A stretch of DNA of 64,000 bases from an uncultured Desulfobacterales bacterium. Lineage in GTDB: Bacteria; Desulfobacterota; Desulfobacteria; Desulfobacterales; SpSt-501. The translations under genes were made by a program, and so were the position numbers. The stretch lies in contig CALIUY010000001.1 in NCBI GenBank assembly GCA_938048455.1, positions 1-64,000 on the forward strand, in the 5' to 3' direction. Each line of letters opens with the position of its first letter. Within the stretch, counting starts at the first letter, position 1. Below are positions 56,875-63,770 of this stretch, one piece after another. The notes beneath the pieces were generated by a model, which was not told where the DNA came from, did no database searches, and saw only the letters and a program-made list of their open reading frames with translations.

Positions 56875-57735
56875 ATGACCCTTCGGTTCCTACACGGGCG
56901 CAGGCTCGCCGAAAACGTCCTGCTGATCGTCTCCGGCGCCCTGCTGTGCGCCTACGCGATCCAGGCGATCCTCGTGCCCAGCCGCTTTCTGGCCGGGGGC
57001 ATCGGCGGTCTGAGCCTGTTTCTTCATTACCTCGTTCCCGCTTTGCCGGTCGGCGTCCTCTATTTCGTGCTGAACATCCCGCTCTTCGCCGTGGGCTGGA
57101 AGTTCGTCGGCCGCCGGTTCTTCGCCTACAGCCTCTTCGGCATGGGCATGCTCTCCGCCTTGCTCTTGATCCCCTTTTCCCCCTGCCCCGTTTCGGACCC
57201 GCTGCTCCAGGCGATCGCCGCCGGCATCCTCTCGGGGGTGGGCAGCGGCCTGATGCTGCGCTCCTTCGGCTCCGGAGGCGGCCTCGACATCCTGTCGGTG
57301 ATTCTGCTCAAGAGCTGGTCCGTCCGGATCGGGACCACGGTCATGGCCTTCAACACGCTCTTGCTGCTCGTGGCCCTGTTCCGCTTTCCGCTGGAGATCG
57401 TGCTCTATACCCTGATCTATTTTTTCGTCACCTCGCAGCTGATCAACCTCGTGGTGACCGGCCTCAACCAGCGCAAAGCCGTCATGGTGATTTCTTCGCG
57501 CTGGGAGGAGATCGCCCGCGAGATCATGGAATCGATGCATCGCGGCGTGACCATCGTCAACGGCGAGGGAGGCTATACGGGACGGCCGCTCAAGATCCTC
57601 TACGCGGTGATCACCTTTCAAGAGCTCTCCCGCTTCAAGGACATGGTGCGCTCGTATGACCCGCAGGCCTTTCTCGTGGTGAGCGAAACCCTCGAGGTCA
57701 TGGGCAAGGGAATCGGCAATCAGCCGCACTGGTAG
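56875..57735 (+). CDS. YitT family membrane protein (DUF161/DUF2179)
   Basis: 286 aa. Six membrane segments with AIQAILVPSRFLAGGIGGLSL (DUF161), then the cytoplasmic DUF2179 domain (about 210-286: RKAVMVISSRWEEIAREIM, GVTIVNGEGGYTGRP, FLVVSETLEVMGKGI). Putative transporter of unknown substrate. Its end overlaps the converging ligase gene by 38 bases. Confidence 0.9.
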   Translation: MTLRFLHGRRLAENVLLIVSGALLCAYAIQAILVPSRFLAGGIGGLSLFLHYLVPALPVGVLYFVLNIPLFAVGWKFVGRRFFAYSLFGMGMLSALLLIPFSPCPVSDPLLQAIAAGILSGVGSGLMLRSFGSGGGLDILSVILLKSWSVRIGTTVMAFNTLLLLVALFRFPLEIVLYTLIYFFVTSQLINLVVTGLNQRKAVMVISSRWEEIAREIMESMHRGVTIVNGEGGYTGRPLKILYAVITFQELSRFKDMVRSYDPQAFLVVSETLEVMGKGIGNQPHW

Positions 57736-58786
57736 GCGCCCCCGCAGGCGGCCCCGGCAGCGCCTCCTCGAGTATGCGGCCGATCGCCTCGGTGAAGGAA
57801 ATTCCCGAGGCCTCGAGGGCGGCCGCAAATCCGGCGTCCGGGGCCAGGCAGGGGTTGGCGTTCACCTCGAGGATCCAGGGATCCCCGCGTCCGTCCACGC
57901 GGAAATCGACCCGCGCCCAGCCTTTCAACCCGAAACCCCGCCAGCAGTCGCAGGCCAGAGCGGAGAGCCGCGTCAGCAGCGCCTTCTCCGCCGCCGGGAA
58001 GGCGAAGCGCCGCGGGGTGTGGAGGAACTCGAAGGAGTCCGGGACCCACTTGGCGCGGTAGCCGACGACGGCGGGGGCGCCCTCCGGATAGCCCTCGAAG
58101 AGGATCTCCGCCGGCGCGAGCACCTGCGGTCCGCCGCCGCCCCCCAGCAGGGAGAGGTTGAACTCCCGGCCGGGGATGAAGCGCTCGGCGAAGCAGGCCC
58201 CGCCCAATGCGGGCGCGCGACGGGCGAGCTCTTCCCGCGCCTGCCCGGCGCGTTCGCAGAGCGGCAGCCGCCTTTCGTCCAGCCCGATCGAGGCGTGTTC
58301 CCAGAGCGATTTGATGAGCCAGGGTCCCGGCGCCGGATCCTCCGGGGGGGCGCAGGGGGCGATTCGCGGCGGCCCGGCCGGCGCGGGGTCGATCCAGGCG
58401 GGGGTGGGCAGACCGAGCAGCACGAGCCGTTCCTTGGCCAGCACCTTGTGCGAGGTGGTCCGCACGGCCTCGGCGGGCGAGCCGGTGAACGGCACCCCCA
58501 GAGTCTCGAGCAGCTCGGGCACCCAATGAATCAGGCAGCCGCGGCCGTCCAACGACTCGACGAGGTTGAAGACCAGATCGGGAGCGGTTTTTTCGAGGCG
58601 ACGGCGAAAGCGTTCGAGATCGAGATCGCACTCCAGACGGAACGCGGTGTGGCCGAGACGCCGCAGGGCCCGGCCGACGGCCGCGACCTGCGCCAGGACG
58701 TCGCGCTCCTCGGGGCCCGCCCTCTCCGTCAAGGCGTTATGGACGATCGCGACCCGCATCGCCTCGGGCGGCGCCGGAGGCTTCAT
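57698..58786 (-). CDS. ATP-grasp ligase, D-alanine-D-alanine ligase-like (second of two)
   Basis: 362 aa (an ATG at 58759 is a possible start). ATP-grasp parts: LVFNLVESLDGRGCLIHWVPELL, GSPAEAVRTTSHKVLAKERL, GREFNLSLLGG, and WARVDFRVDGRGDPWILEVNANPCLAPDAGF (metal and ATP site, N-x-N). The N-terminal part is diverged from true Ddl. Overlaps the other ligase gene by 50 bases. In one operon with kamA. Substrate unknown. Confidence 0.87.
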   Translation of the reverse strand: MKPPAPPEAMRVAIVHNALTERAGPEERDVLAQVAAVGRALRRLGHTAFRLECDLDLERFRRRLEKTAPDLVFNLVESLDGRGCLIHWVPELLETLGVPFTGSPAEAVRTTSHKVLAKERLVLLGLPTPAWIDPAPAGPPRIAPCAPPEDPAPGPWLIKSLWEHASIGLDERRLPLCERAGQAREELARRAPALGGACFAERFIPGREFNLSLLGGGGGPQVLAPAEILFEGYPEGAPAVVGYRAKWVPDSFEFLHTPRRFAFPAAEKALLTRLSALACDCWRGFGLKGWARVDFRVDGRGDPWILEVNANPCLAPDAGFAAALEASGISFTEAIGRILEEALPGPPAGAPTSAADCRFPCP

Positions 58787-59765
58787 CGATCCGCCGCCCG
58801 GCCGATTCGAGCACCCCGGAGATCAGCCGCTCGTAGGAAACCCCTGCCAACCGGCAAAGGATCGGCAGATCGGAATGCTCGGGATGCAGACCGGCCAGCG
58901 GGTTGACCTCGAGAAAGCAGGGTCTTCCCCGGCGGTCGCAGCGGACATCCAGGCGGCCGGCGTCGCGGCAGCCGAGAACGCGCCAGGCCTCGAGGGCGAC
59001 CCGCTCCACCTCTCCGATCAGGGGGTCTTCCCGGGGGGTGACCCGCCGGTAGCGGACCAGCTCCTCGAAGTGCTCCTTGTTGTAAAAGGAATAGACCGCC
59101 TCCTCGGCGCCGGCGAGCAGCAGCACCTCGACGGTGGCGATCACGCGCGCCTCGCGGCCGGTTCCGACCAGACCGACCGTGAATTCACGTCCCGGGAGAA
59201 AAGCCTCGACCAGGGCGGGCTGGCGGTAGTCGCGGATCAGCCGGCCGCAGATCTCGACGAGATCTTTCCGTTTTCGGACTACGGAGCGCGCCGTGACGCC
59301 CTTTCCGGTCCCCTCGGCCACGGGCTTGACGAAATAGGGTCCGCGGAAGCGCACCTGCGCGGCCTCCTCGGGGAATTCCACGACGGCAAACGGAGCGGTC
59401 GGAATCCGCGCATCGCGCACCACCCGTTTGGCCATCGCCTTGTGCAGGGTCAGGCTGAGCACCAGCGGGTCGGAAAAGGTGTAAGGGATTTGGTAGGCGT
59501 CGAGCAGCGCGGGCACCTGGGCCTCCCGCCCCATGCCGTAGAGCCCCTCGGCGATGTTGAAGACGAGGTCCCAGCGGCGTCCTGCGGCCAGTCGTTCGAC
59601 CAGCCGCCGGAGGTTGCCGATGCGCTCGGTCTGGTGACCCAGCCCCTGCAGGGTACGCTCGATCGCCTCGATCGTCTCCTCGCGGTCGAACTCGGCGACC
59701 TCCTCCTCCGCGAAGCCGAGCGCGCGGTACTCCGAGCGCAGATCGTAGGTGAGCCCGATGCGCAC
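58737..59765 (-). CDS. ATP-grasp ligase, D-alanine-D-alanine ligase-like (first of two)
   Basis: 342 aa from a GTG at 59765, nine bases after the kamA stop. ATP-grasp parts: WDLVFNIAEGLYGMGREAQVPALLD, FRGPYFVKPVAEGTGKGVT, LPGREFTVGLVG and RLDVRCDRRGRPCFLEVNPLAGLHPEHSDLP. Its second half resembles Ddl but lacks its full substrate signature. It could join two amino acids, one perhaps from KamA. Shares the start/stop overlap with the second ligase. Confidence 0.87.
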   Translation of the reverse strand: MRIGLTYDLRSEYRALGFAEEEVAEFDREETIEAIERTLQGLGHQTERIGNLRRLVERLAAGRRWDLVFNIAEGLYGMGREAQVPALLDAYQIPYTFSDPLVLSLTLHKAMAKRVVRDARIPTAPFAVVEFPEEAAQVRFRGPYFVKPVAEGTGKGVTARSVVRKRKDLVEICGRLIRDYRQPALVEAFLPGREFTVGLVGTGREARVIATVEVLLLAGAEEAVYSFYNKEHFEELVRYRRVTPREDPLIGEVERVALEAWRVLGCRDAGRLDVRCDRRGRPCFLEVNPLAGLHPEHSDLPILCRLAGVSYERLISGVLESAGRRIDEASGAARGDAGRDRP

Positions 59766-59773
59766 GATGCGCC

Positions 59774-61117
59774 TCAGTTCTCCGGTTCCCCGAAAACATC
59801 CGGATAACGGCAGGTGCGGCCGCGGAAGTTGCGCAGCAAAAGATCCCCCCCTTCGCGGCCCGCGACGCCGTTCGGCATGAGGGGGATCTTGCCCCCGCCG
59901 CCCGGAGCGTCGACGACGAAGGTCGGAACGGCGTAGCCCGAGGTGTGGCCGCGCAACCCCTCCAGGATCTCGAGCCCGCGGCGCACGGGGGTGCGGAAGT
60001 GCGCCGAACCGGTGATCGGGTCGCACTGGTAGAGGTAGTAGGGCCGCACCCGCATCCGGAGCAGCCGCTGGCAGAGATCCTTCATCACCGGCACACTGTC
60101 GTTGATCCCCTTGAGCAGCACGGTCTGGGAGCCGAGCGGGATGCCGGCGTTGGCCAGCCGTTCGCAGGCGCGCATCGCCTCCGGCGTGCACTCGGCGGGA
60201 TGCGTGAAGTGCAGGCTCATCCAGAGCGGATGGTAGTGGCGCAGCATGCGCACGAGCGCCGGCGTGATGCGCTGGGGCAGGACGGCGGGGATCTTGGTCC
60301 CGATGCGGATGATCTCCACGTGCGGTACGGCGCGCAGCCGCGAGAGCAGCCACGCCAGGCGCTCGTCGTTCAGCGTGAGCGGGTCGCCGCCGGAGATCAG
60401 CACATCGCGCACGGCGGGCGTGCGGCGGATGTACTCGATCGCCTGCTCGAGGCGCGAGCGGCTGGGGTAGATGGCCCCGTGGCCGACGATCCGCGAGCGG
60501 GTGCAGTAGCGGCAATAGGTGGAACAGAAATCGAGAACCAGCAGCAGCACGCGGTCGGGATAACGATGCACCAGGCCGCGGACCGGGCTCTGGTGCTCCT
60601 CGCTCAAGGGATCGTCGTCCTCGCCGGGGGAGGCGACGAACTCCTCCAGGGTCGGGATCACCGTACGCCGCAGCGGATCGGCCGGATCTTCGCGCGAAAT
60701 CAGGCTCATGAAATAGGGGGTGATCCCCAGGGGCAGCTTGGCCTGGGCCTGCAGCACGGCACGGCGCTCGGAGTCGGACAGAACGATCATCCGTTCCAGC
60801 TGCTCGAGGCTGCGGATGCGGTTGCGGACCTGCCACTGCCAGTCGTTCCATTCCTTCTCGGTCGCCGCGGGAAAATGGGCGCGGCGGAAAGCCGTCGCAC
60901 GCGGGGAAGACGGGGTACGCGAGCGGAAAAAGGGAACGACGGTCAGCCGGGGTGTCGGACTCGAAAGCGGGGGCGGGGAAGGTGGGGGTTCGGAGGAAAC
61001 GGGTGAACCCGGAGGCTCCTCATCGTTTTCGGAGCCTGCCTCGTTTCGGGATGCGGGCAGGGAGGACAACCCGCTCGAGCGCATTTTTGCGGCGTCGGGT
61101 TTCATGGAAACCTGCAT
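59774..61117 (-). CDS. kamA: Lysine 2,3-aminomutase family radical SAM enzyme (KamA)
   Basis: 447 aa. Radical SAM motif CSTYCRYC (Cys198, Cys202, Cys205), PLP Lys410 in DAPGGGGKIPLMP, and the lysine-selecting Asp340 (GIND) and Asp366 (QCDP) that match the two Asp of Clostridium lysine aminomutase rather than the Lys/Asn of the glutamate enzyme. So L-lysine to beta-lysine is the likely reaction. The first 80 residues are an unusual Pro/Ser-rich extension. First gene of the operon with two ATP-grasp ligases. Confidence 0.88.
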   Translation of the reverse strand: MQVSMKPDAAKMRSSGLSSLPASRNEAGSENDEEPPGSPVSSEPPPSPPPLSSPTPRLTVVPFFRSRTPSSPRATAFRRAHFPAATEKEWNDWQWQVRNRIRSLEQLERMIVLSDSERRAVLQAQAKLPLGITPYFMSLISREDPADPLRRTVIPTLEEFVASPGEDDDPLSEEHQSPVRGLVHRYPDRVLLLVLDFCSTYCRYCTRSRIVGHGAIYPSRSRLEQAIEYIRRTPAVRDVLISGGDPLTLNDERLAWLLSRLRAVPHVEIIRIGTKIPAVLPQRITPALVRMLRHYHPLWMSLHFTHPAECTPEAMRACERLANAGIPLGSQTVLLKGINDSVPVMKDLCQRLLRMRVRPYYLYQCDPITGSAHFRTPVRRGLEILEGLRGHTSGYAVPTFVVDAPGGGGKIPLMPNGVAGREGGDLLLRNFRGRTCRYPDVFGEPEN

Positions 61118-61299
61118 TCTCCTTTCCGGCGGTAAGTCTTGACTGATGACTCCGCTTTAGGACGTTTTTTTTTCGCCCAGCGATTACACCGGCCGGCGCT
61201 TGTGAAATCCGGCGATCAAGGAAACCATGAGCAAATCTGCAACGGAATCGGTGATCTGGTAATTTTTGAAACCCTTCCTGTTGTGTTTTCTATGGCCGA

Positions 61300-61328
61300 A
61301 TAATACAACCAATCGTGGTTGTCAACAA
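61300..61328 (-). promoter_or_regulatory. kamA promoter with operator in the spacer
   Basis: Minus strand TTGTTG (61328-61323), 17-base spacer, TATTAT (61305-61300). The spacer is almost filled by ACAACCA-ATCG-TGGTTGT (61305-61322), a perfect 7-bp inverted repeat; a repressor there would block polymerase. Start near 61293, leaving a leader of about 175 bases. Confidence 0.55.
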
Positions 61329-61461
61329 CAAAATGCGCCTCAGGGATGCTGAAATATTCCATTCTCTTCATTGGTTATGGGAAATTATACCCTTTTCCGG
61401 CGAAAAAGCAACGCCATTTTGGCAGTTGAAAAAAACTACTTGGGGCCATCGAGGACTTGCG

Positions 61462-61485
61462 ATATGTATCAAAAGAGATACATAT
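61462..61485. repeat. Perfect inverted repeat, possible operator
   Basis: ATATGTATC (61462-61470), six-base spacer AAAAGA, GATACATAT (61477-61485). An operator-like palindrome about 160 bases upstream of the kamA promoter. Confidence 0.6.
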
Positions 61486-61487
61486 GG

Positions 61488-61511
61488 GGTGCAAGAGATG
61501 GTGCAAAAGAT
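61488..61511. repeat. Tandem 12-bp direct repeat
   Basis: GGTGCAAGAGAT (61488-61499) followed at once by GGTGCAAAAGAT (61500-61511), one mismatch. Two adjacent sites with one-turn spacing could bind a regulator. Confidence 0.5.
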
Positions 61512-61556
61512 ATAGATCCAAGGCTATCGGCAGGCGAACGATGAGGGGATTCGATC

Positions 61557-62369
61557 TCAGGGTTTGCGCCCCGCGGCCAAGCGGCGCGAGATGCGGAGGC
61601 AGAGGCGATCGAGCTCGGCGAGGCGATCGATGACGAAATGCGCCCCGGCCGCCCGCAAAACACGTCGGGCTTCCCCGATGGCCGACCGACGCCTCGCCGC
61701 CGGCAGGCGCGAGGCCTCCTCTTCGCTCCATCCGACGAGGTTGCCGGTGGCCGCCACTCCGACCGACCAGCAGCCGGCGTTCCGCCCGGCGGCCGCATCC
61801 GGAAGCGTGTCCCCCACGGCAACGGCCGCGGCAGGGGGCCAGACGGAAAGCCGCTCCAGACACCGGAAAATCATCCAGGGGGCGGGCCGGCCGGCGGGAA
61901 CGTCCTCGACGCAGACCGCGGCCTCGGGATGAAACCCCTGGCGGGCGGCCTCGCCGAGAACCACCTCCATCATCGTGCGGCTGTAGCCGGTCGTGACCCC
62001 GACCCGGATTCCCTCGGCACCAAGCCTCTCCACGGCCTCAAGTGCGCCCGGGATGAGCCGGCTCGAGCCCGGCAGCAACTCGATTTGCAGCGGCACAAAC
62101 TCCCGGTAGAGTTCCTCGATGTCCGCGGTCCCCGGCGCTCTGCCGTAAAGGGCGCGCCAACGCGCCGCGATTTCGGGCTGAGCGAGCAGGGCGGCGATGT
62201 GCTCGCGCTTGCCCAGGCCCATCGGCTCGCGGGCGCTCGCGAAGTCGAGGGCGATCCCGCGGCGTCGGAAGAGTTCGACGAAGGCCTCAAGCGGGGCCCG
62301 GCTGCCGTAGTCGACGCAGGTGCCCGCCAGATCGAGGATTACGGCCCGCAGCGTGATTTTCGATTGCAT
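61557..62369 (-). CDS. phnX: Phosphonoacetaldehyde hydrolase-like HAD protein
   Basis: 270 aa. Nucleophile Asp13 in VILDLAGTCVDYG; the Schiff-base Lys54 in MGLGKREHIAALL is specific to phosphonatase; VGDTLPDAAAGRNAGC is the last HAD motif. Splits phosphonoacetaldehyde to acetaldehyde and phosphate. The C-terminal 60 residues (LPAARRRSAIGEARRVLRAAGAHFV) are typical. No 2-aminoethylphosphonate transaminase gene is beside it. Start ATG 62369. Confidence 0.85.
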   Translation of the reverse strand: MQSKITLRAVILDLAGTCVDYGSRAPLEAFVELFRRRGIALDFASAREPMGLGKREHIAALLAQPEIAARWRALYGRAPGTADIEELYREFVPLQIELLPGSSRLIPGALEAVERLGAEGIRVGVTTGYSRTMMEVVLGEAARQGFHPEAAVCVEDVPAGRPAPWMIFRCLERLSVWPPAAAVAVGDTLPDAAAGRNAGCWSVGVAATGNLVGWSEEEASRLPAARRRSAIGEARRVLRAAGAHFVIDRLAELDRLCLRISRRLAAGRKP

Positions 62370-62416
62370 CCTTGCTCCTTTTCCCGTATTCGGGACGGCT
62401 ACGCCGGAAAAGGGTG

Positions 62417-62446
62417 TTTATACCCCCATCCAACGGCAGGAGGCAA
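62417..62446 (-). promoter_or_regulatory. Candidate promoter for the phnX-like gene
   Basis: Minus strand TTGCCT (62446-62441), 18-base spacer, TATAAA (62422-62417), about 50 bases before the start at 62369. Confidence 0.5.
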
Positions 62447-62555
62447 ACCTTCCCGGACGCTTCCGACCGGCCGGCGGGCGGGACTTTCTTTTGCCGGCCG
62501 AAAGCCTTAGATTCAGCGCCGCCTTCGAAAACGCCCGGCGGGCCGGTTCGATCCC

Positions 62556-63770
62556 ATGCCCATGCACGATCGGCATGTTCTCGAAAAACTCCAGGCGGTG
62601 AACCCGCGGGCCGAAATCTGGTGGGACTCGGCCCCGATGGTCTACGCCTCGTGGGCCGAACGCGTGGTCGCCGCCGCTCCGCCCGCCAAGCGCGACCGCT
62701 GGCGCGACCAGCTCGCGCGGCTCTTCAATCCCGCTGCGCCCGAGCGCAGTCTCTTCCGCGGCGTAACCACCAACCCGCCGCTCAGCCTGGCCGCCTTGCG
62801 CCAAGACCTCTCGCGCTGGACCGAAATCGTTCGCGCCTTCATCCGCGAAGACGCCGCGCAGGGGGTGGAAGCCGTTTACTGGCGCACCTATCGCGAAATC
62901 ATCCGCCAGGGCGCGCAGTTCATGCGTCCTCTCTGGGAAGCCAGCGGCGGCCGCTTCGGCTTTCTGTGCGCCCAGGTCGACCCGCGGGACTGCTTCGACG
63001 CCGAGCGCATGCTCGCCCAAGGGCTCGACCTCGCCCTTCTCGCCCCGAACCTTCTGATCAAGGTGCCGGGAACGCGCGAAGGCTACCGGGTCATCGAGGA
63101 ACTCGCCGCCCGGGGCATCGGCGTGAACAACACCCTCTCCTTCACCGTGCCCCAGTTTGCGGCCTGCCTCGACGCCCTCGAACGCGGCCTCGCCCGCGCC
63201 CGCCGGGACGGCGTCGATCTCTCGCGGTTCCGCTCCGTCATCACCCACATGTCGGGCCGCTACGGACGGCTGGGCGACCTCCCCGCCCAGGCCGAGGCGC
63301 GAGGGATCCCGCTCGAGGAGGCCGACTTGCGCTGGGCCGAGATCACGATTTTCCAGCGCGCCTACCGCCTCGTCCGTGCGCGGGGCCTGCCGGTCAAGCT
63401 TTTGATCAGCAGCATGTGCATCGGGCCCTGCAACGGCCCGGGCGGCGGCGCGAGCTGGCACCTCGAGAAGACATCGGGCGCGGAGGTCGTCTACGCCTGC
63501 CCGCCGCCGTTCATCGAAGCGCTCATGGCGATCGAGGACGACCTGGGGCCGTTCCGCCCCGACGCGGTGGAAGAAGAGGCCCCGCCGGCGACGCTGGCGA
63601 AACTGCGCCGCCTGCCCTACTTCGTCGAAGCCTGCGAGCCCGACGGGTTGAAACCCGAACAATTCAACCGGCACGCGGCCCTGATCGCGACCGCAGCCGA
63701 ATTCGCCCGCGCCACCCGCCACACCGTGGACTTCATCGCCCGGCAGTTCGAGGCGCTGCACACCGGCTGA
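62556..63770 (+). CDS. tal: Transaldolase family protein
   Basis: 404 aa. Transaldolase core with Schiff-base Lys169 in [29 protein letters not shown] near residue 70, and the C-terminal region [11 protein letters not shown]. It is longer than classic transaldolase, fitting the group found beside transketolase in deltaproteobacteria. Transfers dihydroxyacetone groups between sugar phosphates. Followed by the start of transketolase 43 bases later. Confidence 0.88.

What the first reader, a model, noticed from the sequence alone, without database searches (positions are those of the whole stretch)
58737..61117. Lysine 2,3-aminomutase with two tandem ATP-grasp ligases in one operon
KamA keeps the two Asp (340, 366) matching those that bind the lysine side chain in clostridial lysine aminomutase, so beta-lysine is a likely product. 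The two adjacent overlapping Ddl-like ATP-grasp genes suggest that beta-lysine is joined to one or two other molecules. No acetyltransferase (AblB) for the known N-acetyl-beta-lysine osmolyte is present. This could be an undescribed beta-lysine peptide, osmolyte or modification pathway.
Basis: partly seen in the sequence, partly recalled or inferred. Interest (0 to 1): 0.75.

Follow-up and report, generated by a model that had tools for sequence, protein, structure and literature searches.

The report
Beta-lysine pathway with twin ligases
Many sulfate-reducing and related bacteria carry a conserved set of genes that appears to turn lysine into beta-lysine, join it to other molecules with two related enzymes and cap it with an acetyl group, making a small molecule that the papers we could search do not describe.

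Summary
KamA and two Ddl-like ATP-grasp genes are real, intact and in operon order. They form a conserved module: KamA plus both ligases in 71 of 80 loci kept from a genome scan. In 395 genomes of the phylum, 132 of 140 with ligase 1 have a KamA, against 44 of 255 without it. An acetyltransferase is missing at this locus but belongs to the module: a specific GNAT is in 126 of 140 ligase-1 genomes and 2 of 255 others, and this genome has it unlinked (G000:C12:81240). Of the 80 loci, 13 fuse it to ligase 2 and 30 to an acetylpolyamine-amidohydrolase-like deacetylase. Ligase pairs without a nearby KamA sit beside arginine decarboxylase in 8 of 11 loci. Best reading: lysine becomes beta-lysine, is extended by amide bonds and N-acetylated, perhaps with a polyamine partner. 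The product is unproven. By curated cut-offs it is not AblA/AblB, Ddl or EpmB. Ten paper searches found no description.

The parts
59774..61117 (-). KamA-type radical SAM/PLP aminomutase, 447 aa; CxxxCxxC at residues 198-205, lysine-binding Asp pair D366 and D403, PLP lysine K410; N-terminal extension of about 80 residues with a DEEPP motif
58737..59765 (-). Ligase 1 (G1): Ddl-fold ATP-grasp enzyme, GTG start, 342 aa
57698..58786 (-). Ligase 2 (G2): Ddl-fold ATP-grasp enzyme, 362 aa (or start at 58759); fused to a GNAT domain in some relatives
61119..61127 (-). Shine-Dalgarno-like stretch (GGAAAGGAG) just upstream of the KamA start
   Evidence: sequence

Best explanation
The three genes are the core of a small-molecule pathway. 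KamA moves the amino group of L-lysine from C2 to C3, giving beta-lysine. The two ligases, a related pair built on the D-Ala-D-Ala ligase fold, each activate a carboxylate with ATP as an acyl phosphate and form an amide bond, so beta-lysine is joined in sequence to one or two partners. A specific GNAT, unlinked in this genome but linked or fused in many relatives, acetylates a free amine of the product or of its precursor. Many relatives add an acetylpolyamine-amidohydrolase-like deacetylase that could remove the acetyl group for turnover. The most likely product is a soluble N-acetylated beta-lysyl amide or short peptide, used as a compatible solute or polyamine-like metabolite. Shown by sequence: gene content, conserved catalytic residues, linkage, fusions and co-occurrence. 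Inferred: every reaction, the order of steps, the partner molecules and the physiological role.
For: KamA is closest to lysine AM: 497.7 bits for AblA against 427 for the glutamate and 386 for the arginine enzyme. The Asp pair, the cluster cysteines and the PLP lysine are invariant in 80 of 80 cassette KamAs aligned. Both ligases keep the Arg, Asp, Glu and Asn of the Ddl metal/phosphate site (roles recalled) and fold as Ddl. KamA, G1 and G2 occur together in 71 of 80 loci, with a GNAT domain in 62 of 80; of the 18 without it, 10 have under 2.5 kb left after ligase 1. In 395 phylum genomes: G1 in 140; KamA in 132 of those against 44 of 255 others; KamA within 8 kb of G1 in at least 107 of 140; the GNAT in 126 of 140 against 2 of 255. 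The GNAT is fused to G2 in 13 of the 80 loci and shares an open frame with a deacetylase domain in 30. In 20 further loci the gene order varies but the partners recur. KamAs linked to the ligases come from more than one lineage, one grouping with 2a5h (97/95), which is consistent with beta-lysine as the shared input.
Against: No reaction has been tested. KamA falls below the curated AblA cut-off (497.7 against 525.4). Some G1-G2 loci have no KamA nearby, and 8 of 140 G1 genomes gave no KamA at the threshold used; 14 of 140 gave no GNAT. Eight of the 80 loci have no GNAT although 7.9 kb or more follows ligase 1. The genome also has EpmA and no other complete KamA, so this KamA may serve EF-P as well or instead. 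G1 and G2 may not use beta-lysine at all. Co-occurrence counts are not corrected for shared ancestry, although G1, KamA and GNAT each occur in many genera (91, 119 and 81 of 246).
Confidence: 0.55

Rival explanations
1. The ligases join beta-lysine to a polyamine (agmatine, putrescine or homospermidine), so the module makes acetylated beta-lysyl polyamines. This is a special case of the best explanation.
For: Ligase pairs without adjacent KamA lie beside pyruvoyl-dependent arginine decarboxylase in 8 of 11 inspected loci (L216, L219, L220, L222, L241, L243, L244, L245), five with agmatinase and five with deoxyhypusine synthase; in six of the eight the GNAT is also next to them. All 16 such genomes probed for KamA have it elsewhere, in two pieces in G289. 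In L120 the GNAT is in one open frame with an arginase-family (agmatinase-like) enzyme. The deacetylase domain is closest to acetylpolyamine amidohydrolases (E 4e-75).
Against: Of the 80 main-type loci only L120 has any of these polyamine genes within the stretch held. The decarboxylase could supply an unrelated polyamine need.
Confidence: 0.25
2. KamA serves EF-P beta-lysylation and the neighbouring ligases are unrelated to it.
For: EpmA is present (301 bits over a 286.9 cut-off) and neither this genome nor G001-G006 of the same genus showed another full-length KamA (some of these assemblies are incomplete). In G002, G004 and G006 EpmA lies about 4-5.5 kb from the cassette.
Against: KamA is linked to G1 across many families, and KamAs of several lineages are. 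TIGR03821 gives 258 bits against a 369 cut-off. E. coli EpmB has Glu where cassette KamAs have the second Asp.
Confidence: 0.1
3. The ligases make D-Ala-D-Ala or a variant for the cell wall.
For: Sequence and fold similarity to Ddl.
Against: Both are far below the Ddl cut-offs (138 and 96 bits against 243) and have no Pfam match to the Ddl N-terminal domain. A Ddl with both domains is at G000:C7:3604-4569.
Confidence: 0.04
4. KamA acts on glutamate or arginine rather than lysine.
For: The KamA superfamily includes such enzymes; their models score 427 and 386 bits.
Against: The lysine-type Asp pair is invariant (80 of 80) and the lysine model scores best.
Confidence: 0.06

Closest known systems
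AblA/AblB N-epsilon-acetyl-beta-lysine osmolyte pathway
   Same: A lysine 2,3-aminomutase working with a GNAT acetyltransferase
   Different: Two ATP-grasp ligases are added; the GNAT is another family (no TIGR03827 match in this genome); often an added deacetylase
D-alanine--D-alanine ligase (Ddl)
   Same: Fold and metal/phosphate-site residues
   Different: Below cut-offs; different N-terminal substrate region; the invariant Lys-Trp of G2 stands where Ddl 1iov has Lys-Tyr
EpmB/EpmA beta-lysylation of EF-P
   Same: KamA-type enzyme making beta-lysine; EpmA is present in the genome
   Different: KamA is not EpmB by cut-off and is linked to ligases, in relatives also to GNAT
Streptothricin-type beta-lysine peptide assembly
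   Same: Beta-lysine is activated and built into amides (passage in PMC8359417)
   Different: There stand-alone NRPS adenylation domains and carrier proteins do it; here two ATP-grasp ligases would
N-acetylglutaminylglutamine amide osmolyte pathway (recalled, not tested)
   Same: ATP-grasp ligase combined with a GNAT, making an acetylated dipeptide solute
   Different: No beta-lysine and no KamA; not a tandem ligase pair
Acetylpolyamine amidohydrolases (6phr, 3q9b)
   Same: Closest solved relatives of the deacetylase domain of L061
   Different: Here usually in one open frame with GNAT domains; not at this window's locus

Membership tests
AblA lysine 2,3-aminomutase (TIGR03820) | score over the curated cut-off 525.4 | tested here: not met
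   497.7 bits
AblA lysine 2,3-aminomutase (TIGR03820) | radical SAM cysteines, PLP lysine, lysine-binding Asp pair | tested here: met
   C198/C202/C205, K410, D366 and D403; equivalents invariant in 80 of 80 aligned cassette KamAs; roles recalled
AblA/AblB osmolyte pathway | AblB (TIGR03827) in the genome | tested here: not met
   0 matches in G000; over cut-off in 4 of the 40 genomes searched, G000 included
KamA family (TIGR00238) | score over cut-off 199.2 | tested here: met
   356.3 bits
D-Ala-D-Ala ligase | score over NF002378/TIGR01205 cut-offs | tested here: not met
   137.9 and 96.3 against 243 (NF002378); 107 and 74.2 against 245.65 (TIGR01205)
D-Ala-D-Ala ligase | Ddl N-terminal domain PF01820 | tested here: not met
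   no match in either ligase; present in the separate Ddl of this genome
D-Ala-D-Ala ligase | ligation of D-alanine | not testable with these tools
   needs an enzyme assay
EpmB (TIGR03821) | score over cut-off 369.3 | tested here: not met
   258.3 bits
EF-P beta-lysylation system | EpmA/GenX in the genome | tested here: met
   G000:C18:9391-10254, 301 bits
Glutamate 2,3-aminomutase (TIGR04368) | score over cut-off 650 | tested here: not met
   427.2 bits

The most novel reading that the evidence does not exclude
A widespread, undescribed class of conjugated polyamines: beta-lysine joined by two Ddl-derived ligases to an arginine-derived polyamine and reversibly N-acetylated, made by about a third of the sampled genomes of this phylum.
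Probability: 0.2. Interest if true: 0.85.

Novelty: new variant of a known kind. Interest (0 to 1): 0.7.

Why it matters
Lysine 2,3-aminomutase is known in lysine catabolism, in the acetyl-beta-lysine osmolyte and in EF-P modification. A conserved module that pairs it with two ligases, a specific acetyltransferase and often a deacetylase would add another fate of beta-lysine, in organisms that include sulfate reducers. The ligase 1 profile is in 140 of 395 sampled genomes of the phylum, so a metabolite of wide occurrence may be going unseen. Named strains carry the module (Desulfosarcina widdelii PP31, Desulfosarcina cetonica JCM 12296, Desulfatitalea alkaliphila M08but), so it can be tested now.

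Tried and rejected
Considered and rejected: chance neighbourhood (conserved in 71 of 80 loci); cell-wall Ddl (and a separate Ddl); glutamate or arginine aminomutase. A second KamA-like fragment at G000:C10 is a stub on a contig whose other open frames look foreign by eye; it was set aside. Rfam found no RNA element in window 57000-62600. Foldseek listed, for both models, only D-Ala-D-Ala or D-Ala:D-Lac ligases among the 50 rows shown, so it does not tell the substrates.

Papers. Ten searches of an open-licence library. One search found 57 papers with two of three terms, 40 listed; three of those listed hold ATP-grasp with aminomutase or beta-lysine. Their passages were read: PMC11641026 and PMC6150868 meet the term ATP-grasp only in reference lists, PMC8359417 in passages apart from beta-lysine. 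None describes this set in what was read. Passages only were also read in PMC3543383, PMC2821294, PMC11201294 and PMC13422317, on AblA/AblB, acetyl-beta-lysine or EF-P. All other papers were seen in listings only.

Results against the reading: 8 of 140 G1 genomes without KamA at E 1e-100 and 14 of 140 without the GNAT at E 1e-25. In G029 (L042) only the first 67 residues of G1 were matched although KamA and G2-GNAT are whole. Polyamine genes were near only 1 of the 80 main-type loci. In L216 and L245 the GNAT is not beside the ligases. The first domain of the large deacetylase protein matched GNAT in L230 (30.5 bits) but not in L059 or L061.

Full report
OBSERVATION. The window holds, on the - strand, KamA (61117-59774, 447 aa), ligase 1 (GTG 59765 to 58737, 342 aa) and ligase 2 (58786 to 57698, 362 aa). 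KamA and ligase 1 are 8 bases apart; ligases 1 and 2 overlap by 23 or 50 bases depending on the start of ligase 2. The finding's interval leaves out ligase 2.

KAMA. The protein aligns with lysine 2,3-aminomutase 2a5h over 359 residues, E 1.5e-141. NCBIfam: AblA 497.7 bits (cut-off 525.4), glutamate AM 427.2, arginine AM 385.9, EpmB 258.3 (cut-off 369.3), KamA family 356.3 (cut-off 199.2). So it is a KamA-family enzyme nearest to lysine AM, not an AblA by the curated cut-off. The Asp residues of 2a5h that hold the lysine side chain (D293, D330; roles recalled) correspond to D366 and D403. In 80 distinct cassette KamAs (those over 600 bits) the cluster cysteines, R134, D293, D330 and K337 (2a5h numbering) are invariant; E. 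coli EpmB has Glu at 330.

LIGASES. Both match Dala_Dala_lig_C (76.7 and 54 bits) and neither matches the Ddl N-terminal domain. They score 137.9 and 96.3 bits on NF002378 against a cut-off of 243. They are related to each other (profile comparison 99.9%, 28% identity). AlphaFold2 models (mean pLDDT 86.1 and 85.1) match Ddl structures best. The Arg, Asp, Glu and Asn of the Ddl metal/phosphate site (roles recalled) are kept. The genome has a separate Ddl with both Pfam domains at C7.

CONSERVATION. Ligase 2 at 35% identity or more is in 21 of the 40 genomes searched among relatives, this one included. Most are labelled Desulfobacterales, Desulfobacteraceae or Deltaproteobacteria; a few are labelled Planctomycetota, Calditrichota and others (labels are record titles). 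In those 80 loci KamA, G1 and G2 occur together in 71; a GNAT domain is found in 62: 13 fused to G2, 28 in proteins over 700 aa, 21 in other forms. Of the 18 without it, 10 have under 2.5 kb left after ligase 1 and 8 have 7.9 kb or more.

FOURTH PART. All 28 large proteins carry a deacetylase domain, as do the shorter frames of L105 and L124; a deacetylase frame is present in 34 of the 80 loci (Pfam-checked in L059, L061, L062, where it precedes the GNAT). A separate deacetylase protein in L230, a phylum locus, has a GNAT match in its first domain. The L061 deacetylase domain is closest to acetylpolyamine amidohydrolases (6phr, E 4e-75); its GNAT is closest to 2r7h, a 'putative D-alanine N-acetyltransferase' (E 1e-43). 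In this genome the same GNAT is a single gene on another contig, C12:81240-81710; in G002 and G003 it is also away from the cassette. AblB gave no match in this genome.

CO-OCCURRENCE. Among 395 genomes of the phylum, this one included, ligase 1 (E<=1e-60) is in 140, KamA (E<=1e-100) in 176, GNAT (E<=1e-25) in 128. Ligase 1 with KamA: 132 of 140, against 44 of 255 (Fisher p 5e-55). KamA lies within 8 kb in at least 107 of 140; this is a lower bound, because the list of KamA places was capped and only one of two ligase-1 copies of G204 was entered. Ligase 1 with GNAT: 126 of 140, against 2 of 255 (p 4e-84); all three in 120. One of the two exceptions, G029, has KamA and G2-GNAT but a ligase 1 matched only over 67 residues. 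The p values ignore shared ancestry.

VARIANTS. Of 20 phylum loci that I chose from the 140, KamA is in the stretch in 15 (in L214 and L215 a few kb from G1) and GNAT in 16; order varies (G1-G2-GNAT-KamA in L217, L218, L221) and G1-G2 are one protein in L212 and apparently in L246. Sixteen ligase-1 genomes without a KamA found within 8 kb all have one elsewhere, in two pieces in G289. Eight of 11 inspected KamA-less loci have pyruvoyl-dependent arginine decarboxylase beside the ligases, five of them agmatinase and five deoxyhypusine synthase; L242 was cut by the contig end, L212 and L246 have none. In L120 the GNAT shares a frame with an arginase-family enzyme. No other of the 80 main-type loci showed these genes in the stretch held.

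KAMA TREE. The 25 cassette KamAs sampled fall in one clade (98/100), with L225, L227, L236 and CTRL_L151. Those of L211, L213 and L224 group with 2a5h and non-cassette controls (97/95); L217, L218, L221 and L223 are unresolved. The ligase-GNAT set has therefore been combined with more than one KamA lineage. CTRL_L151, meant as a control, belongs to G024, which has ligase 2 on another contig. EpmB is a very long branch, so its place is unsure.

MECHANISM. The parsimonious reading is lysine to beta-lysine, two ATP-driven amide ligations, N-acetylation, and optional deacetylation. Which molecule is donor or acceptor is not shown. An acetylated beta-lysyl peptide acting as a solute and an acetylated beta-lysyl polyamine both fit; the polyamine context makes the second worth direct testing. 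In this genome KamA is also the only complete candidate found to supply EpmA with beta-lysine.

NOVELTY. Ten paper searches in an open-licence library found no description of the set; the three listed papers that hold ATP-grasp with aminomutase or beta-lysine do not concern it in the passages read. Components are known kinds; the combination looks new.

Noticed in passing
window 61010-61024 (KamA residues 32-36): N-terminal DEEPP motif; [DE]PP[SGDE] occurs upstream of the catalytic domain in 49 of 56 cassette KamAs tested and in none of three non-cassette KamAs (L146, L147, L150); a similar EPPS stretch appears in ligase 1 of L217 and L218. Possibly a docking motif.
   Followed up: partly
between KamA and ligase 1 in relatives, e.g. 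L087:7378-7899: A small Cys-rich protein clusters in 19 of 101 loci, in nearly all inside the operon (L067 is an exception); the one tested weakly matches CxxCxxCC (PF03692, 21.1 bits, below cut-off 23).
   Followed up: partly
L162 (G000:C10:1-6000): Contig with a truncated KamA fragment and foreign-looking frames; possible contamination of the assembly.
   Followed up: partly
L051:9266-10300 (G000:C12:201266-202300): A third Ddl-like ATP-grasp protein, 345 aa, about a third identical to ligases 1 and 2, with similar matches in several same-genus genomes; function unknown.
   Followed up: no
G002:C52, G004:C30, G006:C150: EpmA lies about 4-5.5 kb from the cassette, with a gene that reads like lon protease (by eye) between.
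   Followed up: partly
L042 (G029): KamA and G2-GNAT whole, but ligase 1 matched only over its first 67 residues.
   Followed up: no
L250 (G000:C33) and G000:C3:232281: Two matches to the pyruvoyl-dependent arginine decarboxylase family in this genome (195 and 89 bits); the weaker type is also in G002-G006.
   Followed up: no
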